This document shows positions 23,899 through 39,470 of a DNA stretch of 64,000 bases, piece by piece (within the stretch, counting starts at the first letter, position 1; each line of letters opens with the position of its first letter). Position numbers and translations under genes: made by a program. The DNA comes from Hippopus hippopus (lineage: Eukaryota; Mollusca; Bivalvia; Cardiida; Cardiidae): contig OX328105.1 in assembly GCA_946811185.2 (NCBI GenBank), forward strand, positions 43,586,845-43,650,844. The letters run 5' to 3'. A model generated the notes under the pieces. It was not told where the DNA came from, ran no database searches, and saw only the letters and a program-made list of their open reading frames with translations.

Positions 23899-23904
23899 CA
23901 CCAG
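23899..23904. repeat. Polinton target-site duplication, left
   Basis: CACCAG directly before the left terminus AGTAGTATAGGG. It is identical to 38765-38770. Six-bp duplications are the rule for Polinton integration. Confidence 0.92.
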
Positions 23905-23913
23905 AGTAGTATA

Positions 23914-23962
23914 GGGTAGTCACTTGGGGCAAAATAGGCGATTTTGCCCCATGTGACTACCC
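23914..23962. other. Terminal hairpin of the inverted repeat
   Basis: GGGTAGTCACTTGGGGCAAA... pairs with ATTTTGCCCCATGTGACTAC over 22 bp with one mismatch around a 5-nt loop. The same structure is present at the other end of the element (about 38707-38755). It may be a binding site for integrase or replication proteins (inference). Confidence 0.8.
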
Positions 23963-25045
23963 CTGAGTGCCCCATTCTGCTATCCTGACAGTAAATGGGG
24001 CACCTGGGATAGCAAATGGGGCACTTTTGGAGCATTTTTGGGCGATAGTTGGCCTTTTATTGCAAATATCCTACCCCCATGTTCTATTTATAGTAACATT
24101 TTCATGCGGATTCTCGGATTTTATCGCTTACTCGGTCCCCTTGTGAGCTGTTGCAGAGATTGGCCAGTCCCTATCTGACTTCCCCTGAGCCCCTATTCTG
24201 CTTACCCTGAGTGGGGGTTGTACCCATTTTGCTATAGTAAGACTATATAGGATCGCTATGCTAAGAAGGATTGTCACATAGTTTGTAGTTTAGTCAGCTG
24301 TTGGTTGAGACCGTGATATGGAATAAGGTTAGGACTGCTTTATTGTTTACTTTTAACCACTACTTGGGGCTTTAAGTGGGGTTAGGGCAAAAAAAAAGAT
24401 CAGGGTTTGACCTTGATTTGATATAGAAGACAACCCGATCTTTAATCCTTACCACGCATCAGAGTAGAGATCAATGGGACTGTGTTGTACTTAGGTTGCT
24501 TTATTGTTTACTTTTAACCACTACTTGGGCTTTAAGTGGGGTTAAGGTAAAAAAAAGATCAGGGCTTGACTTAGACTTTTTTCATTGATTTGATATGGAA
24601 GGCAACCCGATCTTTAATCCTTACCACGCATCAGAGTAGAGATCAATGGGACTGTGTTGTACTTAGACTGCTTTATTGTTTACTTTTAACCACTACTTGG
24701 GCTTTAAGTGGGATTAGGGCAAAAAAAAGATCAGGGTTTGACTTAGACTTTTTTCATTGATTTGATATAGAAGACCTGATCTTTAGTCCTTACCACACGT
24801 CAGAGTAGAGATCAATGGGACTGTGTTGTACTTAGACTGCTTTATTGTTTACTTTTATCCACTACTTGGGCTTTAATGGACTTTAGGATTGATATGGAAT
24901 ACAGTTTGATCTTGATCTCGCTGTACCAGGCTGAGGCTAGGAGAATGGTTGCCCTTAGGCTTTTTTGAGTGTAAGTCTTTGACTGAAAGTCTTTTGACTG
25001 AAAATTGACAAATTTGAAAAGAAAGATCTTTTCGTAGTGTTGAGT

Positions 25046-25061
25046 AGCCCTGAAAAGGGCT
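25046..25061 (-). terminator. Histone-type 3' stem-loop, inner end of left TIR
   Basis: On the minus strand AGCCCTTTTCAGGGCT forms a 6-bp stem with a TTTC loop, preceded by AAAACA. A purine-rich GAAAAGATC follows 12-15 nt downstream. It lies 52 bp after the stop of the coiled-coil gene, in sense orientation. Shape, stem length and loop match the histone mRNA 3' signal; only the first base pair (A-T) differs from the G-C consensus. Confidence 0.7.
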
Positions 25062-25112
25062 GTTTTTGAGTATTGATTTATCTACCAAGTCTACTGGTCT
25101 TTTGGAATGATT

Positions 25113-25622
25113 TTACACCCACAATGTTCGCAGCATACTGTTTTTTGGCTCTTGATTTTCCTTTGATTGTTTTTCTTCCCTTACAACAGTCACGATAGAG
25201 TCTGCTAGTTTATAAAGACTGCTTTTATCAAAGTCATTCTCCACTGGAGGCTTCACAGCAACAACGGAAATACGCTTTCTCTGTTGGCATAATGTCTCAA
25301 TGTTTTTGCTCAGTTGTTCGGTGTCTGCGTTCAAAGTCTTTTTTTCCTCCATTTGTTTGTTGAAAGTCTTCAGTTCTTCTAAAATCTGAGTCAATATAGA
25401 ATCTTGCTTTGAATTCAACTGTCTTACTTCTTCAAAAATGCTGTCCATTACCGTCGATGGATTGATGAGTGTTGAATTCATTGCTGTCGATAGAATATCC
25501 CCATTGTTTTCTTTCAGTAGGAATTCGTCTATGTCGAAACCATCCAAGTTAATTCCGTCCAAGTTGAAATCCATTTTCTCCGTTAGCGTTTTTATTCGAG
25601 AACTGAGAGACGAATGATTCAT
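25113..25622 (-). CDS. Coiled-coil protein of unknown function (169 aa)
   Basis: I do not recognise this protein. Residues 20-45 are acidic and Asp-rich. Residues about 55-115 are predicted helical with heptad-like spacing and many Gln, Lys and Glu (coiled coil). The C-terminus is mixed charge. It is the outermost gene on the left and faces the terminal repeat. It has a TATAAAAG box at 25643-25650, only about 20 bp before the ATG, a shared palindromic module further upstream and a histone-type stem-loop after its stop. An early regulatory or a virion accessory role are both possible. Confidence 0.7.
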   Translation of the reverse strand: MNHSSLSSRIKTLTEKMDFNLDGINLDGFDIDEFLLKENNGDILSTAMNSTLINPSTVMDSIFEEVRQLNSKQDSILTQILEELKTFNKQMEEKKTLNADTEQLSKNIETLCQQRKRISVVAVKPPVENDFDKSSLYKLADSIVTVVREEKQSKENQEPKNSMLRTLWV

Positions 25623-25642
25623 TATTTGGAAAATATCGTTGG

Positions 25643-25650
25643 CTTTTATA
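25643..25650 (-). promoter_or_regulatory. TATA box of the coiled-coil gene
   Basis: TATAAAAG on the minus strand, 21-28 bp upstream of the ATG at 25622. The transcript would have almost no 5' untranslated region. Confidence 0.6.
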
Positions 25651-25660
25651 AGCTGGTGGG

Positions 25661-25814
25661 AGGATTGACCTACTTTGGCTCAGAATTAACGGTGACCGAT
25701 CAAAATGTGTAATGATATAACGAACGAATCGATTGGACAACGTTAATTCTGTGTCAAAGTAGGTCAATCCTCTCGTCAGAACTAGGAATTGACCTACTTT
25801 GACTCAGAATTAAG
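25661..25814. promoter_or_regulatory. Palindromic regulatory module, left copy
   Basis: Two inverted 31-bp arms (25661-25691, 25741-25771) read GGATTGACCTACTTTG then a CAGAATTAACG tail. A third direct arm lies at 25786-25814. The spacer between the arms matches 37197-37252 in reverse. The arms contain TGACCT and, in the third arm, TGACTCA, resembling nuclear-receptor half-site and AP-1 words. It lies upstream of the gene at 25622. Function as promoter, enhancer or origin is inference. Confidence 0.65.
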
Positions 25815-25971
25815 AGGTAACTTCGGGAAAAAAGAATGAAGAACTCCGTTGTTTTTAAACAGTAGAACTTTTATTTGAACAGAACTAAACAATGAACATA
25901 TTTACAACAAGACACATAAATAAAGAACTGTTAACAATAAGAACATTGAAAATGTTTTTTATGTCTTTTTT

Positions 25972-26472
25972 TCACTGTTTTTGGGAAGTCTCTGAGAGTT
26001 TGTTGTATAGATTTCCGTAGTGGTGATAAAACCATGATGATACAGCTCGATCGTTTCGGTGATGTTCCGTTGAGAGGAATTTTTGTTGAAGATATTTTTG
26101 TATATTGTATCCTCTAGCAGCAGCACCCAATGCGAAGATACAGTAAAATCCGCAAACTTTCTCCTGTAGACTCTGAAGAGTTTGACGAATGTATCTCCAC
26201 GATAAAGAATGATTGTCTAAAAAGTTTATGATTTCAGGCTCAAGTGGTGGTAGTCCGTAGGAATCAAAGTATAGTACATCGCCACTATTGTTGAATATCA
26301 CTGCCACCCAGTGTTCTCCTGGCATATTTGATCTCTCTGTATTCACAATATAAGCTTTCACATGATTGGGTTTTTGTCGAGGTAACTGGTCTTTTGCACA
26401 CACTTTTGCCTGTAGATTTTTTATCCATATTCCATGATCCAATATATTTTGAATTTCAGAAGTATACATCAC
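25972..26472 (-). CDS. PRO: Adenain-like cysteine protease
   Basis: This 166-residue protein has the adenovirus protease (family C5) motifs in order: GEHWVAV with catalytic His54, YFDS with Asp70, and a Gln-rich stretch (oxyanion Gln100 or 103) before CGFYC with nucleophile Cys107. In Polintons and adenoviruses this enzyme matures capsid proteins inside the particle. Length and spacing are normal and no lesion is seen. The first of two adjacent Met codons is taken as start. It ends 350 bp before the coiled-coil gene's start. A conventional AATAAA lies on the minus strand near 25869, in contrast to the stem-loop genes. Confidence 0.93.
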   Translation of the reverse strand: MMYTSEIQNILDHGIWIKNLQAKVCAKDQLPRQKPNHVKAYIVNTERSNMPGEHWVAVIFNNSGDVLYFDSYGLPPLEPEIINFLDNHSLSWRYIRQTLQSLQEKVCGFYCIFALGAAARGYNIQKYLQQKFLSTEHHRNDRAVSSWFYHHYGNLYNKLSETSQKQ

Positions 26473-26481
26473 GTTTTTTTC

Positions 26482-26946
26482 TTAGTCACTTTCTTCCCAG
26501 GATTGTTTTACTTTGTAACACCAGTGATGTAGCCAAGACGAATCCACAAATTCAGATAAAATGTTTTCTTTTAAATCCTTCCACAATCTGTAGGCTTCCA
26601 TATATCCACTTTCATCGAGTTTCATTTCCATTAATTCAGGATACCATTGTTCCATGATTTTGTATGGATTTAATTCCATCATAGCTTTTTCTATGAACAT
26701 ATCTGTTTGTTCTTGTCTGTTCTTGAATAAACACATAAAGTGCTGTATTTGACTGGGGTGATCCACTTGACATCCGTAACACTGGTTGCGAGCTTCACTG
26801 GTAATAAGATTTTGTAAATCTTCAATCATATTTTTTTCGAAGCTATTGTGAATGTCATTTTTCCGAGTAGAGATGCACTTTGAAGTAGAATATTTCACTT
26901 CTTCTGCTTCTTCTCTCAGGGACATAGCAAATCTGAGTCCAAGCAT
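26482..26946 (-). CDS. Conserved Cys/His protein (CYGCQ..HPSQ motif)
   Basis: A 154-residue protein with a helical N-terminus and, at about residues 50-72, C-x2-C-x3-DHPSQ-x2-H-x2-C, which could bind one zinc ion. The rest is Glu- and Trp-rich. The motif recurs in Polinton/adintovirus-type loci of invertebrates to my recollection, but I know of no assigned function. It ends 9 bp before the protease start, so the two are probably co-transcribed. A TATATAG word lies about 10 bp upstream of the start. Confidence 0.75.
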   Translation of the reverse strand: MLGLRFAMSLREEAEEVKYSTSKCISTRKNDIHNSFEKNMIEDLQNLITSEARNQCYGCQVDHPSQIQHFMCLFKNRQEQTDMFIEKAMMELNPYKIMEQWYPELMEMKLDESGYMEAYRLWKDLKENILSEFVDSSWLHHWCYKVKQSWEESD

Positions 26947-26969
26947 TGTTTTTTCTATATATGCTCTTT

Positions 26970-27100
26970 AGTCCTGAAAAGGACTGTTTTTGATATATAT
27001 ATATACTCCTTAGCCCTGAAAAGGACTGTTTTTTTGTGAAAGCTGTCTTTTTGTTCCGGGGTAATGAATAAGAGATCTGTTCAGAGTCCTGAAAAGGACT
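26970..27100 (-). terminator. Three tandem histone-type stem-loops after the capsid gene
   Basis: Stem-loops at 27085-27100, 27012-27027 and 26970-26985 each read AGTCCTTTTCAGGACT or a one-base variant (AGGGCT arm with a G-T pair) on the minus strand. Each is preceded by an A-rich run ending in ACA. The first is 22 bp after the capsid stop codon. The last is followed directly by AAAGAGC. Three in a row is unusual, and the compensated stem changes argue for selected structure. Confidence 0.7.
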
Positions 27101-27122
27101 GTTTTTTCTGTTGATTACAAGA

Positions 27123-28448
27123 TTAGTAATCTGTGATGATTTCTCTCAAACTGTTGATTTCAACCTGATTGTCAAATTCAGCAAAGACAATAACGTTGAT
27201 AACTGCTGCTAGAGCTTGAGCGAACTGAAGTTCAATTCGAAGACTTCCAGTTTTTATAGGATGAAACTGTCCTTCTTCACTGCCTTGATCAGCTGTCAAA
27301 TCGTATCCCCACAAACAGTATCCACCAATATAGTCTTCTTTGGCAATATCAAATGATTAATTGAGTCCAAAGGCTGAGATAGCCTGATACATTGACAAAT
27401 ATGATTTCAAATACAGTCCTCCTTCAAAGTTAGGCTCAAAGAGTCTGTTATGAATACTGTGACCATTACATAATACATCTATTTTTGACAGATTAAAATG
27501 TTGAAAGAAAAATGGGTTGGTGCCATAACTCCCATTATAAGCAGCATTTGTTACCATTGCAATGAAAATACGTTTTGGAAGCTGTCCTTGAAACAAATGA
27601 TCTTCAACTTTAGAGTGAAGTCCGGTGCCAATGGTAAAAGTTTTTACTTCTACTCTACGAATAGGAATTTTCATGTTTTGCTAAGCATTAACATGATTAA
27701 GATCATTTGCAATAACAGGCAACAATTCAACATTTCGCACATGAAGACTGACTGTTTCCAGTACAATTTTTGTAGCTGGTGCACCAGTACCTCCTGTGAG
27801 ACAAAAGTTTTCCGAAGTCCTGTTTAATCTAAGTCTGATTTCAATTCCGTTCGGTAAATATTTTTCTTGTTGAAATAGATCAAGATGCAATCGTCCGAAA
27901 AGTTCTGCATTTTTGCTTTGTGCAATTACACCTATTCTTGTTTTTAAACCCTCATTATCAGCATCATGGTTGAGTGAATTGAAATGACCAGTGGTGTCTT
28001 CAGCCCAAAGTACGCTATCTTTCAAATGCGTAGACTTGCTATCGGCATTATATGACAGAAGATTTTCGATATACGCTCTGTATGGATAGGTGTCTGAATT
28101 ACTGCTGATTAATTTATTATTTAGATACAAATCGACGCTGCTAAACATACTATGCAGGAAATTGTTTACAGGTGCCACATTTGAACCGGCCTCTAAATCA
28201 TTACCGTCTGCTTTAATGATTTTGAATTTGATATACAAATACGATTGTGCCAAATCTGTCCAATGTTCGGTTTGAGGTGGTATGATAAATTCTATCGGTG
28301 CATTGTTTGACAAAGATGATATTGGAAAATGTTCAACCCATTGACTTTCTTGCATAGTTGTCATTGTAGGTGGTACAGAAAGAACATTGAGTTCTGATTT
28401 ACTGCATTCACAAGACCCGTTTTGCATCATTTTCAAATTGTTTTTCAA
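27123..28448 (-). pseudogene. MCP: Major capsid protein (double jelly-roll), two in-frame stops
   Basis: One continuous minus-strand frame of 442 codons carries the Polinton/adintovirus hexon-like capsid protein. The N-terminal CECSKSELNVLSVPPT region, the SQWVEHFPISSL segment and a C-terminal INVIVFAEFDNQVEI strand are recognisable. It is interrupted by TAG at 27681-27683 and TAA at 27357-27359, with no frameshift. Each lesion is a single codon. They may be old nonsense mutations, or the first (TAG followed by CAA, a leaky context) could be read through. As it stands, full-length product is not expected. Related database entries are often labelled F54H12.2-like. Confidence 0.88.
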
Positions 28449-28470
28449 TCAAATATATTAATCAAACATA

Positions 28471-28860
28471 TTAATCAAATATATCAAGAGGTCTAGGTCT
28501 ACTGTAATGATTTCTTTGTTTCTTATTGATGATCTTACCGTTGCGAGATCGAGAAGATAACTGACGTGTTTCTCGCGATTTTCTTTTATCTATCCCTGTC
28601 ATTACCTCTAACTTTTGTGCTAAATCATGAATAGATTGTTTTCCCCGTGAAACTGCAACTTTTTTTGGACTTTTGCCTCGTAAGAGGATATCTTCTGCTG
28701 CACGTAATCCTTGTTTGATTCCTTCTTTTTTAATAGCATTAAACCCAGATTTGACTAGAGGTTTTATCAATGGAGTTACTGTTTTAAGTGCTGATTTAAA
28801 TAGGGAACCTAATCCATAGCCATACTGATGTTTTACACCGCGATAAACTGGTAACTTTTT
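28471..28860 (-). CDS. Putative minor capsid protein, no ATG
   Basis: The frame is open from a stop at 28861-28863 to the stop at 28471. Its start reads KKLPVYRG, then a Tyr/Gly-rich GYGLGSLF, a Pro/Lys segment, amphipathic helices and a very basic tail. This layout resembles the short basic minor capsid proteins (pVI or pX-like) of adintoviruses. No ATG occurs in the conserved N-terminal part. The only late candidate is a TTG near 28770, which would delete it. Either the start codon was lost, a non-ATG start is used, or a spliced leader supplies it. Confidence 0.6.
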   Translation of the reverse strand, partial: KKLPVYRGVKHQYGYGLGSLFKSALKTVTPLIKPLVKSGFNAIKKEGIKQGLRAAEDILLRGKSPKKVAVSRGKQSIHDLAQKLEVMTGIDKRKSRETRQLSSRSRNGKIINKKQRNHYSRPRPLDIFD

Positions 28861-28864
28861 TTAA

Positions 28865-29770
28865 TTATTTTTCAGTTGAACGTTGTCTGAAATGCAACTT
28901 AACGATTGTCTTACCAGTAATGAAGTGAACTGGTATACCAGAATCCCCCGTTATTTGAATGTGAATCATATCGAAATCGGATTTCGAAACGGGAATGTAA
29001 TGCGGTATTGTAATTTCATGATTGATATGCTGACAACCATTATTATTTTCAATTGCATCGGATGTTTTGAAAGGCAGAACACGAAGTATGGGAGCAAGTC
29101 TATCACCCACTATATTGTGTTCAGCAATATCTGAATAAACGTACAGATGATTGTAGCCAGCATCAATGTTAGCAGTGTATTTAAAGTAATCGAAAATATT
29201 TTTACCCTGAAAAAATGTCTCATTTTTGTATTCTGGTGATCCACCCAGTTTTAAAAACAGTGATGAATGTAATTTGAGTCCCGTTTTTATAATATTTTCG
29301 AAAATAATTTTCGGACGTTTGGATAAAGTTGAATATTTAATGTACAGAGTCGCCGATCTCTTATGAAGGGCAACGCCTATGTTATCTTGAATCAACTCAT
29401 TGATTACCTCTATAAGATGCTGTGGTGAAGTGTAACTCCCAGATGGAAAGATAAATCGAATTGACCATTTTATCGGTTTATTTGCACTATTTCGTCTTAT
29501 TGGAGACACCTGCATATTATCTCTTTTTCTGTCTAGATCTGATACTAATTTGGTAAAATCGGCATCTGTTGTTATAATTTCGAACTGCGCTTCTTCTTCA
29601 CTTATGTTTAAGAACTGAGAGGGAGTAATAAGTTGACCTAACGCAACTTCCCAATTTTCCTTGTCAATATGAACTGTCTTTGGTAAATGAACCTTAAAAC
29701 AACATTGTGTGTTGTTCGGATAAAAGTTTATGGAACTATCGCTAGGTAGAGTTAGATAAAACGAATTCAT
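28865..29770 (-). CDS. Penton / minor capsid protein (single jelly roll)
   Basis: An intact 301-residue protein starts M-x-x-F-Y-L-T-L-P-S and has a YPNNT motif near residue 20 and WEVALGQL near 40. It ends with a DSGIPVHFITGK-x4-LHF strand. This order is that of the Polinton penton protein, which fills the five-fold vertices of the capsid. The start overlaps the end of the next upstream gene (2-TM protein) by 29 bp. It stops 2 bp before the stop that bounds the minor capsid frame, fitting a compact late virion operon. No lesion. Confidence 0.85.
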   Translation of the reverse strand: MNSFYLTLPSDSSINFYPNNTQCCFKVHLPKTVHIDKENWEVALGQLITPSQFLNISEEEAQFEIITTDADFTKLVSDLDRKRDNMQVSPIRRNSANKPIKWSIRFIFPSGSYTSPQHLIEVINELIQDNIGVALHKRSATLYIKYSTLSKRPKIIFENIIKTGLKLHSSLFLKLGGSPEYKNETFFQGKNIFDYFKYTANIDAGYNHLYVYSDIAEHNIVGDRLAPILRVLPFKTSDAIENNNGCQHINHEITIPHYIPVSKSDFDMIHIQITGDSGIPVHFITGKTIVKLHFRQRSTEK

Positions 29771-30071
29771 TTTTTACTGTCAACGATATAACAACACCCG
29801 GTTGTTTTTGTCCTGATTTGGTGAATTTTAACCCTGGAGATGGAAGAATATACCCAAGTGAACTACTTAACAATATCAACCACAATTCACGATCTTGACT
29901 TTGAATACTTAAATGTACTATCGAGGTTGCAATAATTGCGTAAATGACTATAATCTGTGTAATATATGTAAACTGATTCTTAGGAACACGATTTCCACAG
30001 CAATTGTAATTTTTACTACTACTACTATCCACACTTTCTGTTCCAGTCTCAATGTTCGACTGTGAATTCAT
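29742..30071 (-). CDS. Two-helix membrane protein
   Basis: A 109-residue protein has an N-terminal Ser/Asn-rich tail, a CCGNRVPKNQ motif and two hydrophobic segments (about residues 36-56 and 66-82, the second ending GYILPSPGLK). Small 2-TM proteins of this pattern occur next to the capsid genes of Polinton/adintovirus elements as I remember them. A membrane or inner-virion role is likely but unproven. It overlaps the penton gene start by 29 bp in another frame. Confidence 0.75.
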   Translation of the reverse strand: MNSQSNIETGTESVDSSSSKNYNCCGNRVPKNQFTYITQIIVIYAIIATSIVHLSIQSQDRELWLILLSSSLGYILPSPGLKFTKSGQKQPGVVISLTVKNEFVLSNST

Positions 30072-30113
30072 AACGAATGCAGTGACTTTTTATCTAAAAG
30101 TTTTTTTTACTGT

Positions 30114-31226
30114 TCAAGACACCAAATAGGATTCTGGTATCCAACTTTGAAATCTTTTTGGATAACCTTTCCAATTGACTTTTATTTCTTTGATTAATTT
30201 TTTACCCTCACGTCTTGTACGTTTATCAAGAACTGAATCAATTTCATAAATTTCATCATCTTTTATTAATTGAAGTTCATGTTCATAATAGGTTCCCAAA
30301 ATTTGTTCACCCTGTAAATCTTTTATTTTATATGTGATAGGCGAAAATGTTTTGTTGACATGAGTGATTTCAAATATTTCTTGTGTCCAATTTGGTAAAT
30401 ATCCCTTATCAAATGTATGTTTTGTTTTATTGATTCGAACATGATCTCCAATTTTGAATTTTGGCTTCTTTGTCAATACAATTGACGATAATTGCCGATA
30501 CAGATTTTTCGAAATCTCTGCCTCATTCGATTTTGTTACCAGTACAGGAGATGTTTTTATACTTCTGTGAAAAGTATGATTGTAATTTTTAACTAAAGAA
30601 TTCAAAATGTCAATGTAACGCCTTGTTTTCTTGTACGTAAAGTATTTCCACATTCTCGTTTTTAAAGTTCGTTGAAATCTTTCAACGATACTTGCTTTTG
30701 TCTCTGGATTTTCAGTGGTGAAAAAATGAATCTGATTCTTTTTCAAGTATTGTTGAAACAGTTTGTTTTTGAATTCCGAACCTTTATCTGTTTAAAGTGA
30801 CAAAGGTTTTCTTTTTGATTTCTGAACAATAGATTGAAATGCTTTAATCAAAGTTTTTCCCGTTTTATTTGGAATAGGGACAACCCATGAAAATCTTGAA
30901 AACACATCAATCACACAAAGTAAATATTTCTTGCTATCATTTTGTCTTGCTAAATGTTGCATGTTAGCCAAATCAGCTTGCCATTGATAATCTATACCAC
31001 CTACAATAGTTTTTCGTCTTTTGAATCGACGACGGATCAGTTTGTGCAAGGTATAGGTGGATTCACCCTGCAACCACTCTTGAACATCTCTGTATCTTAT
31101 TCCTTTTAAAACAGATTTCGCAGCGTGATACAATTGATTTATTCCAGTAAATGCGACAGTACTGTTAGGATCATAAAACAACTTTTTTAACACGTAATCA
31201 AGTTTAGGCTTTACCATGGCTCCCAT
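30114..31226 (-). pseudogene. INT: Chromodomain integrase, one in-frame stop
   Basis: A 371-codon frame encodes a retroviral-type (rve) integrase of Polinton kind. The catalytic DDE is visible: Asp in W-Q-A-D-L, Asp in T-D-K-G-S-E-F and Glu in A-S-I-V-E-R-F. It is followed by an SH3-like segment (FKIGDHVRI ... NWTQEIFEI) and a C-terminal chromodomain-like module (VNWKGYPKRFQSWIP). TAA at 30792-30794 lies directly before the second catalytic Asp. The enzyme integrates the element with a 6-bp duplication. The copy is otherwise undamaged. Its start overlaps the next gene by 16 bp. Confidence 0.9.
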
Positions 31227-32080
31227 GACTGAAGTGTTTGACGAGACGGGGTCTTTTTTATAGACTTTGGTGGAGTTAACAGTTCTTTAACATAGAATTG
31301 CTTCAATCGTTCTCTTTCTTCAGGCCTCATGTATGGCGATTTTTCTTTGATCCTTTCCATACTTTTTTTAGCACTTTTTGTAGGGGACTTCCTTGCACTT
31401 TTTCGTACGCTTTTTGGCGTGTGAAATAAGTGATCAGATTCTCCATAGGATTCTTCATCTTCACTCAGTGATTTATCATGAGCTTTTTGCATCCATCTCC
31501 ATCGGCTCGAATTGCCAATAACTTCTTGAGGTATATTGCTTTCATGTAATGCCTTCGAAAAAGTTTTCCATCCTCTGGGTTCAACACCTTTTCTTTGACG
31601 TATTGCATCATTGATAAGATCAATAATATTGGAACCATGAATGCGTGTACCTTTGTATGACACGACTCCTTGTTCGTTCCAAGTTAAATTATTGTTATCT
31701 TTTATCATACTCAAAAGTAACTCAGCTTTTCTTTTCATGGTTTTTGGTACACTTTGCAAAATTTGATCATGCAAGGCAACAGATGCTGATTTCTGTACAC
31801 GATCATCAGTTTTTGCCATTGGAAGAGAATTGATCAAGGATGGTTTTGCTTTTTGAAGCGAATTTTGTAACTTAAACAAAGTTTCACCATACCTTCGAGC
31901 TTTTTCTGTTTCTGACAAATCGGTACTTTGTAAAATCTGACTCATGTCTTTTTGAAGATGTGATACATCTACAACTTGTGGGTCGGGTGGTAAACGAGGT
32001 TTTTGAGATTGTTCGGCTTTCCATCGTTTCATATTTTCTAAGGCTTGGTAAGGCACAATAACCATTTTTCTAACAGACAT
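31211..32080 (-). CDS. Conserved Polinton-type protein with basic SP-repeat tail
   Basis: A 289-residue protein with a helical N-terminal half (starts VPYQALENMKRWKAEQ; later DLSETEKARRY) and a central segment GTRIHGSNIIDLINDAI. The tail has repeated K-S-x-R-K-S-P and TPPKS motifs. It occurs beside capsid genes in related elements and is probably a virion-internal protein, but I cannot name a function. The frame is intact. It overlaps the integrase start by 16 bp, suggesting one transcription unit. Confidence 0.7.
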   Translation of the reverse strand: MSVRKMVIVPYQALENMKRWKAEQSQKPRLPPDPQVVDVSHLQKDMSQILQSTDLSETEKARRYGETLFKLQNSLQKAKPSLINSLPMAKTDDRVQKSASVALHDQILQSVPKTMKRKAELLLSMIKDNNNLTWNEQGVVSYKGTRIHGSNIIDLINDAIRQRKGVEPRGWKTFSKALHESNIPQEVIGNSSRWRWMQKAHDKSLSEDEESYGESDHLFHTPKSVRKSARKSPTKSAKKSMERIKEKSPYMRPEERERLKQFYVKELLTPPKSIKKTPSRQTLQSWEPW

Positions 32081-32113
32081 GGTGTGATTTTTTTTTAAAA
32101 ATAATAAAAATAA

Positions 32114-32530
32114 TTACAAGGCTTTTAGAGCCCCTCCTATTCCACCGATCACGGCTTTTCCTAACAAAGGTAATAATGGAGGTGCAAGCAATGGAAGAAA
32201 TCCACCTTTTTGATTTAAAATTTGTTTTTTATTTTTTTCAGAGACCGATTTCGAAGCTAAACGTCTGAGATGTTGTCGGCTTGAATACAACTGCTTCTTC
32301 TGAGCTGATGATAAATGTACATTGCCTTTTAAAACATTATGACAGCATTCCGATATACATTTTATCACTTCTGATGGCGAATCCTTCACAAGTCTTTTAC
32401 ATATTTTTGGTGTAGCCTGCATCATGGCCATAACCATCGAACCGTGTTTTTTAATCAGAGGTGTTTTCTTCATGTTGACTTTATCTCTATCTCGAATTAA
32501 ATGATGATGTAAGATCCATATCACTATCAT
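32114..32530 (-). CDS. Small basic core-like protein (KGNVHLS..., Gly tail)
   Basis: A 138-residue protein. Its core reads VIKCISECCHNVLKGNVHLS, then a Lys/Arg-rich helix (HLRRLASKSVSEK) and a hydrophobic, Gly-rich end (GGFLPLL ... GGIGGAL). This motif set is frequent in Polinton/adintovirus loci; role unknown, perhaps a core or membrane-active minor virion protein. The start is uncertain: the later Met at residue 20 (MKKTPL) looks better than the first. The next gene upstream has the same layout and is probably a diverged paralogue. Confidence 0.7.
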   Translation of the reverse strand: MIVIWILHHHLIRDRDKVNMKKTPLIKKHGSMVMAMMQATPKICKRLVKDSPSEVIKCISECCHNVLKGNVHLSSAQKKQLYSSRQHLRRLASKSVSEKNKKQILNQKGGFLPLLAPPLLPLLGKAVIGGIGGALKAL

Positions 32531-32575
32531 TTATACCTGTTGTAACATCCTATCTTTTACAGTCAGAATTCTTTT

Positions 32576-33737
32576 TTAAGAAAAGTATGATTCAAGATCG
32601 CTGAGTAATCTAAACTTGCTTCCTAGGCCTGCGTTCATGGGGATGATTTTTCCTTCGCCAAGGTGCATCATCCTATTGGGGTAGTCAATTTTGTATCTTC
32701 CTGTGTCAAAGTTATATTGAGTCATATCATCCACCAACCGATTTTTTTTTTTTTTTTTTTTTTGTGTGTTTACCTCTTTTGTATTTAGCTAATGTATATG
32801 GAGACCATGAGGCGGATGGGATGGGTTCAAACTGCAATGCTCTACCTGGTACCAGAAATTGTGAATACTTTGTTTTCAGTTTCCGCAATCTTTCACTTAA
32901 CAGTTCCTTTCTGGACTTCGGATACTGTTGATGTTCTGAAATGCTACTTTCTCCAGTTTATCGTTTTCGGGTAGTGACAAATCTTTCATTAATCGTATGG
33001 GGTCTTTGAGAATCAACAATTACAAATTGAGTTGAACCATTTTCTCCATCCCAGTCTATCGTGGTTGGGTCTGCTATTGATTCCCTATGCGGAGTGATCT
33101 TTTTTGGAGATGATGTGCTTGGGGCTGGTATTAGCTCCCAGCGCGGAGTTGATGTGCTTGTGCCTGGCATTGGTTCCCAGCGCTGAGTGATCTTTTTTGG
33201 AGTTGATGTGCTTGGGTCTGGTATTGGCTCTCTGCGCGGAGTGATCTTTTTTGGAGATGATTTCTTCTTCAGGGATTTTTTCTTTCGTGGAGCACGCTTT
33301 CTTGGAGATTTCTTCTTTTTTGGAGATTTCTTCTTTTCTGGAGATTTCTTCTTTCGTGGAGCACGTTTTCGAGGTTGTCTTTCAGCCCCAAAGTTTCTAA
33401 CGGTTTTTGTTCCATCCCATCTCAGTAAACTTCTGATAATAACACCACCCAGAAATCCACCTCCTCCAGGTTTTAAAATAATTTTACGTTTACTTTCATC
33501 ATCTGTGGACGGATCTGCTAACCTCTCAATATCTTCTCTATGTTTTGTTATGTACGTAGTGGTTTGCTTTGGTAATTTGATTTTATTGTCAATGATGTAT
33601 CTTGCTGCCAGCGTAAACCATTTTAAAATTTCTTTTAATCCTGCCTTTAACAGAACTTCTTTTTCATATCTATCGGTTTGTTGACTTAAATTTCGCAAAG
33701 CAGCTAAAACCGAAGTTGGTGTGTGTGGTATAGCCAT
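32576..33737 (-). pseudogene. Core-like protein with SPKK repeats, broken
   Basis: The intact N-terminal part (33737 to 32958, 259 codons) has a helix-rich segment and GGGGFLGG. This is followed by a tail of KKKSP, SPKK and SPRK repeats like those of sperm histones, which bind the DNA minor groove. After TAA at 32958-32960 the same frame stays open and codes for a further 60-odd residues. It then enters a 22-nt A run (32742-32763 on the plus strand as T), where a one-base shift is needed to reach a last open segment ending at 32576. I infer one longer gene with a nonsense codon and a homopolymer frameshift. The shift could be a sequencing error. Confidence 0.65.
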
Positions 33738-33854
33738 GTTTATTCATTGACGTGAAACATGAAAATGATTTATATTTAAAATGTAATTCTCTTTTAAAAC
33801 AAGAACTTCAAATAAGGACTTTTAAATATGAACTTTTTTTGAAAAAACCTATTT

Positions 33855-34532
33855 TTAAGCTGGAGAATAAACAATTGGTCCTCTTTTATCTCCTTGTGTA
33901 TACCAACGATAGAATATATCTGTTCTCAGTCTTAATTCTTTGTTTGTTCGTGAATGAAAATCTATGACTAGATATCCATGGTCCAGCGATTTAGCGTCTT
34001 CATAAGCGGGTAACAAATGTGGGGCTTGCATTTGGTGAGCCATTGTTTTAATTTGATTCTTATCTCGTTCATTTCGAAATAAAATCATGTATCTGGAATT
34101 AAGACTAATGGTTCGACTCGATTTCGACTGCTGAAACATATTTTGTGTGATATAAATCACACTTGCATTACGATGATGGCCTTTTCTTGTAAACCAAAGT
34201 TTAATTTTTTCCTCGTCTTTTTCACCCAACATGTCATCAAAGACGATTAAATGTGGAATGGATACATCACTGACAATTTCGTTTTCATCGTCAGGAATTC
34301 CCTCCACGAAATTTATGAATTCAAACTGTGAATTAAATTTTTCCTGCATAAGATTGTATGCATACTGCCATTCTTTGTAACACCAGACAACTCTTTCAGG
34401 AAAGATGTTGAACAAGTCTTCTCGATAGTCAATTAATTTATGAACGAACTCTGTTTTTCCACACCCGCTCGGTCCTGTGATGAAAATATTACAAGGGTGT
34501 TGAAATAAAATAGATTGTACATCCACCTCCAT
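33855..34532 (-). CDS. ATPase: FtsK/HerA-type genome-packaging ATPase
   Basis: A 225-residue P-loop protein: Walker A GPSGCGKT (residues 20-27), Walker B LIVFDD (about 95-100), and a sensor-like YITQN near residue 128. This is the A32-like packaging ATPase of Polintons and large DNA viruses, which pumps DNA into preformed capsids. Length is typical and the frame is intact. It lies upstream of the SPKK gene on the same strand. Confidence 0.92.
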   Translation of the reverse strand: MEVDVQSILFQHPCNIFITGPSGCGKTEFVHKLIDYREDLFNIFPERVVWCYKEWQYAYNLMQEKFNSQFEFINFVEGIPDDENEIVSDVSIPHLIVFDDMLGEKDEEKIKLWFTRKGHHRNASVIYITQNMFQQSKSSRTISLNSRYMILFRNERDKNQIKTMAHQMQAPHLLPAYEDAKSLDHGYLVIDFHSRTNKELRLRTDIFYRWYTQGDKRGPIVYSPA

Positions 34533-34745
34533 GTTTTTTTACTTTTCTCTTTAAGGTCTAATGATAAAATGACAACATAAATAAAATGAAAGCGTTTTTA
34601 TTCACAAAAAACATTTTATTCAGAGTTGACAACGAAATATTGACAATAAATTATTTTTACAATGAATTATTTCTTACAATATGGCATAAAACATTTTTTT
34701 AACAAATATAACATTTTACAATATAACATTTTAAAATATAACATT

Positions 34746-35380
34746 TTACAATGCAAATTCACAAATCCCTCGAGTTCTCCATTTGTCTTCATGTTCCGTA
34801 ATGTCTTTGTGCAATTGGTCATCACCCAAATAAAATGGATATACACTGTCCATTTCACTGAATTCACGTGTTCCACTAAATGGATAAACATGTTTTAAAA
34901 CGTCTTTCGTTGAAAGAGATGAATATACAATTTTCTCTGTAACATCTCTATCAAATAAGATATAGCCTTCCATAGTATCCACTATTTCCTCAGAGTCTCG
35001 AATAGATCCTTTTTTGTAGCGTAAGTAAAAGTTAAATAAAACTGATTTCATTTTCAGAACGTTCAGAAAACTTTCTTCGGTTCTTCCTATGATCACGAAA
35101 CACCATCGACTTGTGGATCGCATTTGTTTACCATTAGCACCGCCTTTCCACCAGTAAGTTGCTAAATAAGTTTTGATGATGTGTTTCAAATCCCAATAAA
35201 GTGCTGTATACCATACAATTTGCAGGACGATTCTCCTTTTGCAAACCCTCTGTGCAATTTATCTATCCAAAGTTCCACACAGCGGAGTTTAATGTTAAGC
35301 TGCATTCGTTCATCGAGCGTATGCTGTTAAACGAATTCTCCATAAATCTTTTCACTTAGTTCTATTGGTAAAGGCAGCAT
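34746..35380 (-). pseudogene. Unknown gene, stop plus frameshift
   Basis: An ATG at 35380 opens a frame beginning MLPLPIELSEKIYG. It meets TAA at 35327-35329, then stays open as a coding-looking stretch (VELWIDKLHRGF) to about 35170. Around 35170-35230 the coding signal moves to the neighbouring frame, which continues as the 147-codon open segment ending at 34746 (motifs WWKGGANGK, EGYILFDRD). I read this as one decayed gene of about 210 codons. I do not recognise the family. AATAAA words lie downstream on the minus strand near 34597. Confidence 0.55.
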
Positions 35381-35601
35381 AATTTTTCAGCGATATTTTG
35401 TGTCTTACTCGGACCGTTCAGTTCAAAACAATGTAACATGGAATTATTTCCTTAAACTTTTATAACCATAATCGTCACTTTCACTGTCTGAATAGGATAC
35501 TATTCTTTTTTCTTTTAGCCATCGTTTATGTCTGATTGTAAGACAATGACACGGTAAGTCAGAAAACTTGGCATTTTATAGAGTCTTTCACCCAAATAGT
35601 G

Positions 35602-35609
35602 TATAAATA
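35602..35609 (+). promoter_or_regulatory. TATA box of the zinc-knuckle gene
   Basis: TATAAATA lies 69 bp before the ATG at 35678. A TCATTC word near 35634 is a plausible initiator about 30 bp downstream of it. Confidence 0.65.
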
Positions 35610-35677
35610 GAGACGATAGCTACGAAATCTATATCATTCCTCTGATCGACTTCAGACAGTACAGCTGACAAAAAATA

Positions 35678-36544
35678 ATGAGCGAGTTTAAGCTACAAAG
35701 TACACCACTGCTAGGAAAGTTGATGTATCTGTATGTTAACCCATACACCCACGATTACGAGATCAGCAATGTTCCGTTAAAGTATCAAGTTCAACATAAC
35801 GGGAATTACGTGGGATCATTTTTATCCCATCAACATGTAACAGAAAAAGACGTTTACCGTATTACCAGTTACAGAGTTTTGAATCAAGCAACGATCGATA
35901 GACGATATGGGATGGATGGAAAGAGAAAAGATATTTGTTTTACATGCAACAAACAAGGACACTGGGCTAGAAATTGTCCAGAAAAAGAAAATCAGACAGA
36001 AACAGTCGTTTTTGTCTATGTGAACCCACGCAGTCACGATATCAAAATTTCACCAACAATGAATCTGGGTGGTGAATTTCACTACATGAAATTCGTTGGT
36101 GTTCTGAAATCATTCTGTAACGAAAATAAATGGAAAACATTCACACCACAGACTACAACATCATCGACTGAAAATCAGATCGAAAATATGCAGATCGACA
36201 ACACGACTATCAGCGATACAGAGATCTGTAAAATAACAGAACAGATAGAGAAAAAAATATCTACAAACGATAATCTAAGAAAACAACCAACTTTGGAACT
36301 AAAAAACAACGAACTTTCTTCTGAGGAGACTCGTTCACCAAAAGAGGAGAAAAAGCAAAACAACGAAAAAAGAGAAAGCGAGAAAAAAAAGAAGTGTTTC
36401 TTTTGCAAATCAAAAAAAAAAAAAAAACATGGGGATAAAATCTGGATCTGTCCAGATATGGTATTAAAAAATAATGAAAGGGGAAGAAAACGAAAGAATG
36501 AATGTGAATCTGACATTCCAAAGAAAAAAAGAAAAACACAGTGA
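35678..36544 (+). CDS. CCHC zinc-knuckle protein (288 aa)
   Basis: The main plus-strand gene of the element. Residues 1-75 are a globular domain of unknown type. A single retroviral-type zinc knuckle C-x2-C-x4-H-x4-C (CFTCNKQGHWARNC) lies at about 87-100. A second Tyr/Phe-rich segment echoes the first (VNPYTHDYEIS versus VNPRSHDIKIS), suggesting an internal duplication. The C-terminal third is Lys/Glu-rich with a CFFCKSKK pair and a nuclear-signal-like KKKRK. Nucleic-acid binding is likely. A replication or RNA-handling role in place of the missing polymerase is speculation. AATAAA follows at 36646. Confidence 0.75.
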   Translation: MSEFKLQSTPLLGKLMYLYVNPYTHDYEISNVPLKYQVQHNGNYVGSFLSHQHVTEKDVYRITSYRVLNQATIDRRYGMDGKRKDICFTCNKQGHWARNCPEKENQTETVVFVYVNPRSHDIKISPTMNLGGEFHYMKFVGVLKSFCNENKWKTFTPQTTTSSTENQIENMQIDNTTISDTEICKITEQIEKKISTNDNLRKQPTLELKNNELSSEETRSPKEEKKQNNEKRESEKKKKCFFCKSKKKKKHGDKIWICPDMVLKNNERGRKRKNECESDIPKKKRKTQ

Positions 36545-36752
36545 AAAACAATTTCAATTGTTTTAACAAAAAAGACTGACTTGTTTAAATGTTTTCATTC
36601 CACTGTTTTTACAGTTCCTGACTTGTTTCACTGTACAAATGATTGAATAAAAAACATATGAAATAATTCTGGGGCTTGACTTTTTTTCTTCTGACTGTAA
36701 GCCTTTTGACTGTAAGACTTTTGAGAGAAAAAAATTGACAATTCGAAAGAAA

Positions 36753-36789
36753 AGCTCTTTCTTGGGGAATGGTAGCCCTGAAAAGGGCT
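36753..36789 (-). terminator. Histone-type 3' end: stem-loop, ACCA and CAAGAAAGA element
   Basis: On the minus strand the stem-loop AGCCCTTTTCAGGGCT (36774-36789) is followed at once by ACCA. Nine bases after the stem comes CAAGAAAGAGCT (36753-36764). This is the full layout of an animal histone 3' processing signal: 6-bp stem, UUUC loop, cleavage at ACCA, and a purine downstream element that pairs with U7 RNA. It lies 75 bp after the stop of the 84-residue gene, in sense orientation. Confidence 0.75.
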
Positions 36790-36863
36790 GTTTTTTCTCC
36801 ATTCACTGGCTGGATAAATTAATTCCATACCAGTGAAGGATACAGCTTCATCAGCTTCTTCTA

Positions 36864-37118
36864 TCATCCACGATGCTCGGTGGGTGGCATGAAATCCCTC
36901 AGATCGGGGTAAATATTCCCCATCTTGATCTTCGGCGTACGAGTATAAAACTCGTACCCCCTCCTCTCAAAAAAAGCACACAGGGCTTTGAACTTTAGTC
37001 TCTTTCTTTCTTCTTCTCTTTTCTTCTCCATCTCTATCTTCTCCTCCATCTCTTTCTTTTTCTCCTCCTCAACCTTTGGCTTTCCAAATACCCCACAGAA
37101 AAAGCTGCTGCCTTTCAT
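36864..37118 (-). CDS. Small charged-helix protein (84 aa)
   Basis: Starts MKGSSFFCGVFGKPK and continues as a long Glu/Lys-rich helix (about residues 16-42). It ends with a Tyr/Pro-rich segment (NIYPDLRDFMPP). I do not recognise it. A TATAAAAA box (37149-37156) lies about 31 bp upstream of the ATG, beyond it the shared palindromic module, and a histone-type 3' end lies downstream. It diverges from the 46-residue gene on the plus strand. The complete set of expression signals makes it a credible gene despite its size. Confidence 0.65.
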   Translation of the reverse strand: MKGSSFFCGVFGKPKVEEEKKKEMEEKIEMEKKREEERKRLKFKALCAFFERRGYEFYTRTPKIKMGNIYPDLRDFMPPTEHRG

Positions 37119-37148
37119 TGTGAAATAACCCGATAATAAAAAAGTTCG

Positions 37149-37348
37149 TTTTTATACGTTTGCAGGGGGATTGACCTACTTTGACTCAGAATTAACGTTG
37201 TCCAATCGAATCGTCCGTTATATCATTACACATTTTGATTGGTCGACGTTAACCCAACTGTATTTTCCTCTATACAAAACACTATTCTCAGTGATCATAG
37301 TTAAAATACTTTGTAGTCACTACTTTATAGCTCTGTAGACTATAAAAG
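37149..37348. promoter_or_regulatory. Divergent promoter with shared module
   Basis: TATAAAAA for the minus-strand gene (37149-37156) and TATAAAAG for the plus-strand gene (37341-37348) flank the module at 37167-37252 (GATTGACCTACTTTGACTCA onward). The module is the near-identical counterpart of the one at 25.66-25.81 kb. A CATTCATTC word about 22 bp after the right TATA could be the initiator. Confidence 0.65.
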
Positions 37349-37410
37349 ACAATCGCAAAACACATTCATTCGGAACTCAGCTGCTGTAGAGTTAAAACCA
37401 AATCAGCACA

Positions 37411-37551
37411 ATGTTTGGACTGACAATTTTACTTACATTACTGTACTGGATAGAAGAAAGAGAACGCCTTAGACGTATAAGGCGTGAAGTTGAGCATCTA
37501 TTCCAAGTAAAAAATGCGATGGAAAATAGGAGAATAAAGAGAAGAGGTTAA
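37411..37551 (+). CDS. 46-residue membrane-anchor peptide
   Basis: ATG at 37411, TAA at 37549-37551. The N-terminus MFGLTILLTLLYWIE is hydrophobic, followed by a very basic helix (RERLRRIRREVEH ... RRIKRRG). A TATA box 63-70 bp upstream and a histone-type stem-loop 20 bp after the stop support expression. It is the outermost gene on the right and faces the terminal repeat, mirroring the coiled-coil gene on the left. Function unknown; a small membrane or fusion-accessory peptide is one option. Confidence 0.6.
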   Translation: MFGLTILLTLLYWIEERERLRRIRREVEHLFQVKNAMENRRIKRRG

Positions 37552-37567
37552 AAAAGTGAACCTGTAC

Positions 37568-38764
37568 AAACAGCCCTTTTCCGGGCTATCCCAACACCAC
37601 GAAAAGATCTATCTTTCCTCAAATTTTGTCAATTTTCAGTCAAAAGACTTTCAGTCAAAGACTTAACTCAAAAAAGCCTAAGGGTAACCATTCCCCTAGA
37701 CTCAGCCTGGTACAGCGTGATCAAGATCAAACTGTATTCCATATCAATCCTAAAGTCCATTAAAGCCCAAGTAGTGGTTAAAAGTAAACAATAAAGCAGT
37801 CTAAGTACAACACAATCCCATTGATCTCCACTCTGATGCGTGGTAAGGATTAAAGATCGGGTTGTCTTCTATATCAAATCAATGAAAAAAGTCTAAGTCA
37901 AACCCTGGTCAAACCCTGATCTTTTTTTTTGCCCTAACCCCACTTAAAGTAAACAATAAAGCAGTCTAAGTACAACACAGTCCCATTGATCTCTACTCTG
38001 ACGTGTGGTAAGGACTAAAGATCAGGTTGTCTTCTATATCAAATCAATGAAAAAAAGTCTAAGTCAAACAAGGTCAAACCCTGATTTTTTTTTTGCCCTA
38101 ACCCCACTTAAAGCCCCAAGTAGTGGTTAAAAGTAAACAATAAAGCAGTCTAAGTACAACACAGTCCCATTGATCTCTACTCTGACGTGTGGTAAGGACT
38201 AAAGATCAGGTTGTCTTCTATATCAAATCAATGAAAAAAAGTCTAATTCAAACAAGGTCAAACCCTGATCTTTTTTTTTTAACCTAACCCCACTTAAAGC
38301 CCCAAGTAGTGGTTAAAAGTAAACAATAAAGCAGTCCTAACCCTATTCCATATCACGGTCTCAACCAACAGCTGACTAAACTACAAACTATGTGACAATC
38401 CTTCTTAGCATAGCGATCCTATATAGTCTTACTATAGCAAAATGGGTACAACCCCCACTCAGGGTAAGCAGAATAGGGGCTCAGGGGAAGTCAGATAGGG
38501 ACTGGCCAATCTCTGCAACAGCTCACAAGGGGACCGAGTAAGCGATAAAATCCGAGAATCCGCATGAAAATGTTACTATAAATAGAACATGGGGGTAGGA
38601 TATTTGCAATAAAAGGCCAACTATCGCCCAAAAATGCTCCAAAAGTGCCCCATTTGCTATCCCAGGTGCCCCATTTACTGTCAGGATAGCAGAATGGGGC
38701 ACTCAGGGGTAGTCACATGGGGCAAAATCGCCTATTTTGCCCCAAGTGACTACCCTATACTACT
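37568..38764. repeat. Right terminal inverted repeat
   Basis: Inverted copy of 23905-25066, slightly longer because of different lengths in its tandem units (one unit lacks about 20 bp near 37946). The inner end carries its own copy of the histone-like stem-loop. Confidence 0.92.
37572..37587 (+). terminator. Histone-type stem-loop, inner end of right TIR
   Basis: AGCCCTTTTCCGGGCT on the plus strand, the TIR copy of the signal at 25046 with one base change that breaks the closing pair. GAAAAGATCT follows at 37601. It serves the 46-residue gene. Confidence 0.6.
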
Positions 38765-39470
38765 CACCAGCAATATCTATGCATTTCTTATGTCTGGTCA
38801 TCCATTTGTTGTAAGTTTCAATGTACCAGTCTTCAGTTAATGACGATACAACAATTTGAGTCTGTTTTGTAAGTTCCTCTGCTGAATTGAATGGCTTTCC
38901 ACGCAAACTCGCCTTCAACTCAGGAAAAACCCGGAAATCCATAGAAGACATATCTTTGGTCTCTGGATCAAAGTGGTGTAACCAGGTCTCATCCGTCGTG
39001 AGGATCCGATCAAGAAAATCCTCGCCGTCAGATTCGTAGCGGTGAAGAAACTTCTGTGAACGGTGTACGCGGCGCTCCTTTTCATTTTCCTTGAGTAATC
39101 GTGGTGCCCACCGAGCACTCACTTTCGACATGCCAAGTTCCTCAGTTAGTATACCATGTACTGTTGAGCACGAAACACCGAGTTCATTAGCAATAGTTCT
39201 GACGGTGGTTCTTCTGTCGGTCTGAACCATATCCTTTACCAACTTCTTAATCGAACAAGTTACGACTGCCGGTCGACCGCTCCTGGAATCGTCGTTAATA
39301 GATTCTCTTCCACTCCTAAAACGCAAATGCCATTTGTAGACAAAAGCTGGACTGCATTTATCATATGCTCCTGTTGATTTTATCATTCGCAGTGTTTCTG
39401 TTGGCGATTTATTAAGTGTAACGCAGAATTTCACCACACTCCGCAACTCAACGCCACAGTTCGAAGTCAT
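38760..39470 (-). pseudogene. Mariner transposase, internally deleted and interrupted
   Basis: The start at 39470 leads into a helix-turn-helix N-terminus (residues 1-115, with SGRPAVVT linker). Then comes the first catalytic Asp in TTDETWLHHFDPETK. Immediately after this the frame jumps to FRVFPELKASLRG, which belongs well past the third acidic residue. About 100 residues with the other catalytic Asp residues are gone. The last dozen codons lie beyond the Polinton, at 23.87-23.90 kb on the minus strand. The enzyme cannot be active. The deletion predates or accompanied the element's death, independent of the Polinton insertion. Confidence 0.9.
38765..38770. repeat. Polinton target-site duplication, right
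   Basis: CACCAG directly after the terminal CCCTATACTACT; identical to 23899-23904. Confidence 0.92.

What the first reader, a model, noticed from the sequence alone, without database searches (positions are those of the whole stretch)
36753..36789. Virus-like element uses a histone-mRNA-type 3' processing signal
After the 84-residue gene, the sense strand has a 6-bp stem with a TTTC loop, then ACCA, then CAAGAAAGAGCT nine bases after the stem. That is the layout of replication-dependent histone 3' ends (stem-loop bound by SLBP, U7-paired downstream element; CAAGAAAGA is the sea urchin form). If functional, mRNAs of this element would lack poly(A) and be made or stable mainly in S phase, coupling the element to host DNA replication. 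I know of no such description for Polintons.
Basis: partly seen in the sequence, partly recalled or inferred. Interest (0 to 1): 0.9.

Follow-up and report, generated by a model that had tools for sequence, protein, structure and literature searches.

The report
Virus-like elements with histone-style mRNA ends
A family of virus-like mobile elements in an animal genome ends many of its short genes with the hairpin signal that animals otherwise use for histone messages, which suggests that it borrows the host's histone machinery to time those genes with DNA copying.

Summary
The 15-kb Polinton-like element holds six histone-type stem-loops (five exact, one with one mismatch; 0.03 expected). Its genome (1.07 Gb) holds 10,528 exact copies of the 19-nt motif (reversed control 0) and 5,270 of the stem-loop with TTGTCA 25-40 nt downstream (control 0). 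The host's own histone genes have the same layout, with TTGTCA at +30 to +33 in 5 of 6. In the window and 11 sampled stretches, stem-loops follow short ORFs on the sense strand (40 of 72; antisense 1 of 72). ORFs with a stem-loop usually have a TATA box (29 of 36, others 23 of 129) and no AATAAA within 200 nt (0 of 36, others 25 of 129). So the elements seem to have a histone-type and a poly(A)-type gene class. The Rfam cut-off is not reached, but 4 of 6 host histone stem-loops miss it too. No RNA data exist here, host U7 was not found, the SLBP search did not complete, and other species could not be tested. Processing and S-phase timing are inferred.

The parts
36774..36789 (-). Histone-type stem-loop of the finding (AGCCCT-TTTC-AGGGCT), 74 nt after the stop of the 84-aa ORF; TTGTCA follows at offset 32
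36753..36764 (-). Purine-rich CAAGAAAGAGCT, beginning nine bases after the stem
36864..37118 (-). 84-aa ORF before this stem-loop, TATA motif 38 nt before the ATG; no Pfam family above cut-off
25046..25061 (-). Second complete signal: stem-loop, purine core (offset 12), TTGTCA (offset 34); 51 nt after the stop of the 169-aa ORF; best Histone3 score found in the window (32.1 bits)
25113..25622 (-). 169-aa ORF before the stem-loop at 25046-25061, TATA motif 28 nt before the ATG; no Pfam family, no homologue at E <= 0.001
37572..37587 (+). Third complete signal, one mismatch (A to C at the loop-closing pair); purine core offset 13, TTGTCA offset 38; 20 nt after the stop of the 46-aa ORF
37411..37551 (+). 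46-aa ORF with a TATAAAA motif upstream and the stem-loop 20 nt downstream
26970..27100 (-). Three stem-loops (27100-27085, 27027-27012, 26985-26970) after the putative capsid gene; no purine core and no TTGTCA downstream
23904..24970 (.). Left terminal inverted repeat region (494-nt arm 99% complementary to the right end; internal ~172-nt repeats)
37666..38765 (.). Right terminal inverted repeat region
33855..34532 (-). Packaging ATPase (Pfam Pox_A32, above cut-off); AATAAA or ATTAAA within 200 nt downstream
30114..31226 (-). Integrase in two ORFs (rve match below its cut-off; chromodomain above)
25972..26469 (-). Adenovirus-type protease (PF00770 match below cut-off); AATAAA or ATTAAA within 200 nt downstream
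35678..36544 (+). CCHC zinc-knuckle protein (above cut-off); AATAAA or ATTAAA within 200 nt downstream

Best explanation
A lineage of Polinton-like (adintovirus-type) elements in this animal genome carries the host's replication-dependent histone 3'-end signal on a class of its own short genes: stem-loop, short spacer, purine core, TTGTCA box. Most likely, transcripts of these TATA-driven genes are bound by host SLBP, cut by the U7/CPSF73 machinery between hairpin and purine core, and end after the hairpin without poly(A); they would then be made, translated and stable mainly in S phase or in the germ line. Other genes (polymerase, zinc-knuckle, protease, ATPase) carry ordinary poly(A) signals. 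Shown: sequence anatomy, copy number, gene-end position, sense orientation, avoidance of AATAAA, and likeness to host histone genes. Inferred: processing, lack of poly(A), timing, and origin by capture of a host histone 3' end.
For: Six stem-loops in the element against 0.03 expected. 10,528 exact motifs genome-wide against 0 reversed controls; 5,270 with TTGTCA 25-40 nt downstream against 0. Of 72 stem-loops in the window element and 11 sampled stretches, 40 follow a sense ORF stop within 150 nt and 1 an antisense stop; random positions 222 of 1,440. TTGTCA at +24..+44 in 47 of 72 against 109 of 3,600 random positions, first of 120 permutations of its letters. Purine core (GAAAG, GAAAAG or GGAAG) at +10..+22 in 52 of 72 against 225 of 3,600. 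Host stem-loops (unit L037, solo H2A L026): TTGTCA at +30 to +33 in 5 of 6, AGTGTCAAT in the sixth, H2B. ORFs with and without a stem-loop: TATA 29 of 36 against 23 of 129; AATAAA 0 of 36 against 25 of 129. Pairs change on both sides in 8 cells against 2.2 shuffled, 0 of 500 as high. 20 of 72 stem-loops have mutually unrelated upstream flanks; 14 of the 20 keep TTGTCA. The second base pair, which SLBP reads (G7-Arg181, passages of PMC10388802), is G-C in 67 of 72.
Against: No match reaches the Rfam gathering score. The first stem pair is A-U in the element (72 of 72, partly by selection, but no G-C-closed stem was found in the same stretches) and G-C in all six host stem-loops. The exact purine-core strings that I counted occur in only 2 of 6 host stem-loops (solo H2A and H2B, by eye; the other four have none). 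Three of the window's six stem-loops lack the downstream parts; in the sample 25 of 72 lack TTGTCA and 20 of 72 the purine core in the expected range. 32 of 72 have no sense ORF of 60 aa or more ending within 150 nt. If ATTAAA is counted with AATAAA, 1 of 36 stem-loop ORFs has such a signal within 200 nt (others 35 of 129). The number of pairs with a two-sided change is not unusual (99 of 500 shuffles). Host U7 was not found. No RNA evidence; the window copy is degraded.
Confidence: 0.8

Rival explanations
1. The hairpins are relics: a host histone 3' end was captured once and spread passively by duplication of element segments, without present function in 3'-end formation.
For: Tandem stem-loop arrays exist (L010-L014), many copies are related, the window copy is degraded, and three window stem-loops lack the downstream parts.
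Against: Sense position after gene ends (40 against 1 of 72), avoidance of AATAAA (0 of 36), two-sided pair changes and constancy behind unrelated flanks (14 of 20) point to selection while the elements were active.
Confidence: 0.12
2. The hairpin is a virus-type termination or RNA-stability hairpin that resembles the histone one by convergence and does not use SLBP/U7.
For: Score below the Rfam cut-off; first stem pair A-U; no U7 found.
Against: The solo host H2A stem-loop differs from the commonest element form only in the first stem pair, and TTGTCA stands at matching offsets in host histone genes. A generic terminator hairpin would not share these.
Confidence: 0.06
3. Chance or composition artefact of AT-rich, repeat-rich DNA.
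For: The single low-scoring Rfam match as first seen.
Against: 0 reversed-pattern controls in 1.07 Gb; no Histone3 match at E <= 0.1 in 60 kb of the same genome (6 of the 10 stretches fetched).
Confidence: 0.01

Closest known systems
Replication-dependent histone mRNA 3' end (Rfam RF00032 stem-loop, HDE, SLBP, U7 snRNP, CPSF73)
   Same: Six-pair stem, four-base loop, AAC before the stem, short spacer, purine-rich stretch near +12; in this genome also TTGTCA near +31. Short TATA-driven genes.
   Different: Attached to non-histone genes of a mobile element, first stem pair A-U instead of G-C, often repeated in tandem. Metazoan histone mRNAs are described as unique in lacking poly(A) (abstract of PMC12775136).
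Polintons (Mavericks) and adintoviruses
   Same: Terminal inverted repeats, rve-type integrase with chromodomain, adenovirus-type protease, Pox_A32-type ATPase; PolB in related copies.
   Different: No histone-type 3' ends for this group turned up in the searches made (listings only, the last two capped at 20 of 58 and 20 of 63). The main text of the adintovirus paper PMC11071296 has 0 occurrences of 'stem-loop' and 'polyadenyl'. PolB was not found in the window copy.
Xeno-class adomavirus 'Histoid' genes (PMC11071296, passages)
   Same: Animal DNA virus group with a histone connection.
   Different: There it is a histone-like protein; here it is the RNA signal.

Membership tests
Histone 3' stem-loop RF00032 | Score at or above the Rfam gathering score 34 | tested here: not met
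   0 matches; best in the window 32.1 bits. Host histone stem-loops: 2 of 6 reach it, so the test is weak in this genome.
Histone 3' stem-loop RF00032 | Six-pair stem with four-base loop, second pair G-C, pairing kept through changes | tested here: met
   (sequences were preselected for at least five pairs)
Histone 3' processing signal | Purine-rich downstream element at fixed distance | tested here: met
   52 of 72 against 225 of 3,600; 3 of 6 in the window
Histone 3' processing signal | Downstream element pairs with host U7 snRNA | tested here: inconclusive
   No U7 above cut-off; pattern search at background (60 against 74 reversed controls); 12 of the 60 fetched, none U7-like
Histone 3' processing signal | Stem-loop bound by SLBP | not testable with these tools
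   Binding cannot be tested; the search for the SLBP gene did not complete
Histone 3' processing signal | mRNA ends after the hairpin without poly(A) | not testable with these tools
   No RNA data; sequence proxy only: AATAAA 0 of 36, AATAAA or ATTAAA 1 of 36
Polinton / adintovirus | TIRs, integrase, protease, packaging ATPase | tested here: met
   protease and rve matches are below their Pfam cut-offs, ATPase and chromodomain above
Polinton / adintovirus | Protein-primed family B DNA polymerase | tested here: not met
   Block absent from the window copy; PolB domain present in related copies L013 and L015
Polinton / adintovirus | Double jelly-roll major capsid protein | tested here: inconclusive
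   ORFs 27357-27674 and 27681-28430 have no Pfam match; the capsid label is inferred

The most novel reading that the evidence does not exclude
A lineage of animal Polinton-like viruses divides its genes into two 3'-end classes and drives one class, short TATA genes, through the host's histone SLBP/U7 pathway, so that these genes are expressed without poly(A) tails and in step with host DNA replication. This would be a natural set of non-histone genes with histone-type mRNA ends, run by a virus.
Probability: 0.6. Interest if true: 0.93.

Novelty: new variant of a known kind. Interest (0 to 1): 0.87.

Why it matters
Histone mRNAs are described as the one class of metazoan mRNA without poly(A) (abstract of PMC12775136; passage of PMC1924863). 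Thousands of virus-like genes with the same signal would widen that class and show how a DNA virus could tie its genes to S phase without encoding a regulator. They would also offer thousands of natural variants for studying which stem-loop and downstream features the histone machinery accepts. Poly(A)-selected RNA sequencing would miss such transcripts, which may be one reason the genes have gone unnoticed.

Tried and rejected
Relatives in other collections: the ATPase alone and as an alignment gave none in viral contigs and one 25-residue match in genome contigs (L009, not pursued). A PolB alignment gave one distant locus (L025, not pursued). The exact element motif is absent from viral contigs. 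The canonical histone motif gave 4 matches there; two lie in open frames of over 200 codons and none has TTGTCA in the stretch shown, so I take them as chance. Conservation of the signal in other species is therefore untested.

Host U7: the Rfam model gave three candidates below cut-off, none U7-like by eye. A recalled Sm-site pattern gave 60 matches against 74 reversed controls; 12 of the 60 were fetched and none has a U7-like layout.

Permuted-box genome control: asked once, unanswered; replaced by a local permutation test on the 72 stem-loops.

The microRNA and sRNA matches lie below their cut-offs, are probably palindromic repeats, and were set aside.

The idea that host histone genes carry the element's A-U-closed stem was rejected for the unit read. 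The six host stem-loops are GGCCCT-TTTA-AGGGCC (three), GGCCCT-TTTC-AGGGCC, GGTCCT-TTTC-AGGACC and GGCCCT-TATC-AGGGCC.

The label H1 for the stem-loop at L037:5448 and my notes is an assumption; one search lists no sense ORF of 90 aa or more between the H2A gene and it.

Full report
The element. The window holds a TIR-bounded element at about 23,904-38,765; one pair of repeat arms is 99% complementary over 494 nt. Pfam finds a Pox_A32-type ATPase, a chromodomain and a CCHC zinc knuckle above their cut-offs, and rve integrase and adenovirus-protease matches below theirs. The ATPase has 252 relatives in public protein sets. PolB of a related copy has named relatives in Mercenaria, Saccostrea, Crassostrea and Ostrea, and also in corals and echinoderms. 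A bivalve host is likely but was not tested.

The observation. The hairpin and the downstream sequence are as described. It is one of six: 25046, 26970, 27012, 27085 and 36774 on the minus strand are exact to AACAGYCCTTTTCAGGRCT, and 37569 on the plus strand has one mismatch; 0.03 matches are expected with 3 mismatches allowed. Three of the six (36789, 25061, 37572) have a purine core at offset 12-13 and TTGTCA at offset 32-38. The three after the putative capsid gene have neither.

The genome. The window's own assembly has 1.07 Gb. The motif occurs 5,243 + 5,285 times, the reversed control 0 times. With TTGTCA 25-40 nt downstream the commonest stem form still occurs 2,590 + 2,680 times, control 0. 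Only the first places, on contig C1, were listed. I fetched 11 stretches there around listed matches. They were chosen because they hold the motif, so they say nothing about how many elements lack it. Each has blastn matches to the window element. A PolB domain was found in L013 and L015; the ORFs of L010 and the small ORFs given in the same call had none, and the long ORFs of L018 and L020 were not given.

Position. The window element and these 11 stretches hold 72 stem-loops (at most one mismatch, at least five pairs). A sense stop of an ORF of 60 aa or more lies within 150 nt upstream of 40, an antisense one of 1, and at random positions of 222 of 1,440. Of 165 ORFs tested, 36 have a stem-loop within 120 nt. 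Of these, 29 have a TATA box and none has AATAAA within 200 nt; of the other 129, 23 and 25 do. With ATTAAA counted too, the figures are 1 of 36 and 35 of 129. The ORFs are not independent, because copies are related and many of the 129 are probably not genes, so the Fisher p-values printed are only a guide.

Stem. Pairs 3 and 4 are C-G, U-A or U-G. In 43 distinct sequences two-sided changes occur in 8 cells against 2.2 shuffled, and 97.3% of cells pair. The number of pairs with a two-sided change (2) is not unusual (99 of 500 shuffles), and the sequences were preselected for pairing, so this is supporting evidence only. All 72 are closed by A-U; no stem closed by two G-C pairs was found in the same 12 sources.

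Host yardstick. The core-histone search scored 150 of 256 candidates; nearly all matches lie in one cluster on contig C15. One unit (L037) and a solo H2A (L026) were read, a small part of that cluster. Their six stem-loops are closed by G-C. Five have TTGTCA at +30 to +33 and the sixth, of H2B, has AGTGTCAAT at about that place. Near +12 they read CGAAAG (solo H2A), TAGAAAG (H2B), CGAAAAAC (H4), CGAGAG (H3), TGAGAG (L037:5448) and CGAATT (H2A); the exact core strings counted in the elements occur in the first two only. So TTGTCA is the firmer common part, and the purine core is shared loosely. The element's GAAAGTTCTATCTTTCTTCAAATTGTCAA and the host H2B's GAAAGTTCTTTTCCTCAGTGTCAATC show the closest likeness. 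The canonical GGCYCTTTTCAGRGCCAC occurs once in the genome, at the solo H2A. TTGTCA is found at +24..+44 in 47 of 72 element stem-loops against 109 of 3,600 random positions, and is first among the 120 permutations of its letters.

Rfam. No match reaches 34 bits in the window or the 11 stretches. In the more sensitive mode, six of the 11 stretches (L011, L015, L017-L020) give 23 Histone3 matches at E <= 0.1, 22.9-31.3 bits, where one search counts 31 stem-loops. The six host stem-loops score 30.0-37.9, two of them at or above 34. Sixty kilobases of the same genome, 6 of the 10 stretches fetched around the solo H2A, gave none at E <= 0.1. The cut-off therefore does not separate real from false well here.

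Mechanism. SLBP binding, cleavage by U7 snRNP between hairpin and downstream element, and an mRNA ending a few bases after the hairpin are established for histones (passages of PMC7026596 and PMC1924863). The minimum SLBP site and the G7-Arg181 contact are described in PMC10388802 (passages). The elements keep the second-pair G-C in 67 of 72. I infer that they use this pathway for a class of short genes. Ten products of such genes give no Pfam match above cut-off, and the 169-aa one has no homologue at E <= 0.001. What these proteins do is unknown.

Literature. No paper in the library holds 'histone stem-loop' with 'polinton' or with 'virus' and 'Maverick'. One holds histone, stem-loop and adintovirus, each once (listing only). 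The broader searches listed no description of this by title and start of abstract; two searches listed 20 of 58 and 20 of 63 papers. The library is limited to open-licence papers, and the first adintovirus paper is not held, so an earlier report elsewhere is possible.

Noticed in passing
window 35470|35471 and 25904-34702; L013, L015, L017-L020: In related copies a block lies exactly where window positions 35470 and 35471 are adjacent: about 4 kb in L013, L015, L020 and between L017 and L018, about 2.8 kb in L019; it holds PolB in L013 and L015. The window's block 25,904-34,702 (ATPase, integrase, protease, putative capsid) has no blastn match in the 11 fetched stretches, though only L017 plus L018 span a copy from end to end. 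PolB-bearing and capsid-bearing copies may be complementary.
   Followed up: partly
L010, L011, L012, L013, L014: Stem-loops in tandem, 24 nt apart, and ~148-nt repeat arrays behind some ORFs.
   Followed up: no
window 25686-25770 and 37168-37252: 85-nt inverted repeat, 93% complementary, upstream of stem-loop genes and recurring in several fetched copies; looks like a shared promoter module.
   Followed up: no
window 27357-28430 and 30114-31226: Putative capsid gene and integrase gene are each split into separate ORFs: this copy is degraded.
   Followed up: no
window 38760-39470: 236-aa ORF at the right end of the element that resembles a mariner-type transposase (recalled, not tested).
   Followed up: no
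L037 454-498, 1485-1530, 3218-3261, 4273-4318: In the one host histone unit read, H3, H4 and H2A have a TTTA loop and H2B a TATC loop, where TTTC is the recalled usual form. TTGTCA about 31 nt after the stem may be an undescribed part of the host signal (not searched for in print).
   Followed up: partly
L019 4221-4427 and relatives: Recurrent 68-aa cysteine-rich protein (MVQILLCPMCGSRC...) before a stem-loop; weak FYDLN_acid match below cut-off.
   Followed up: no
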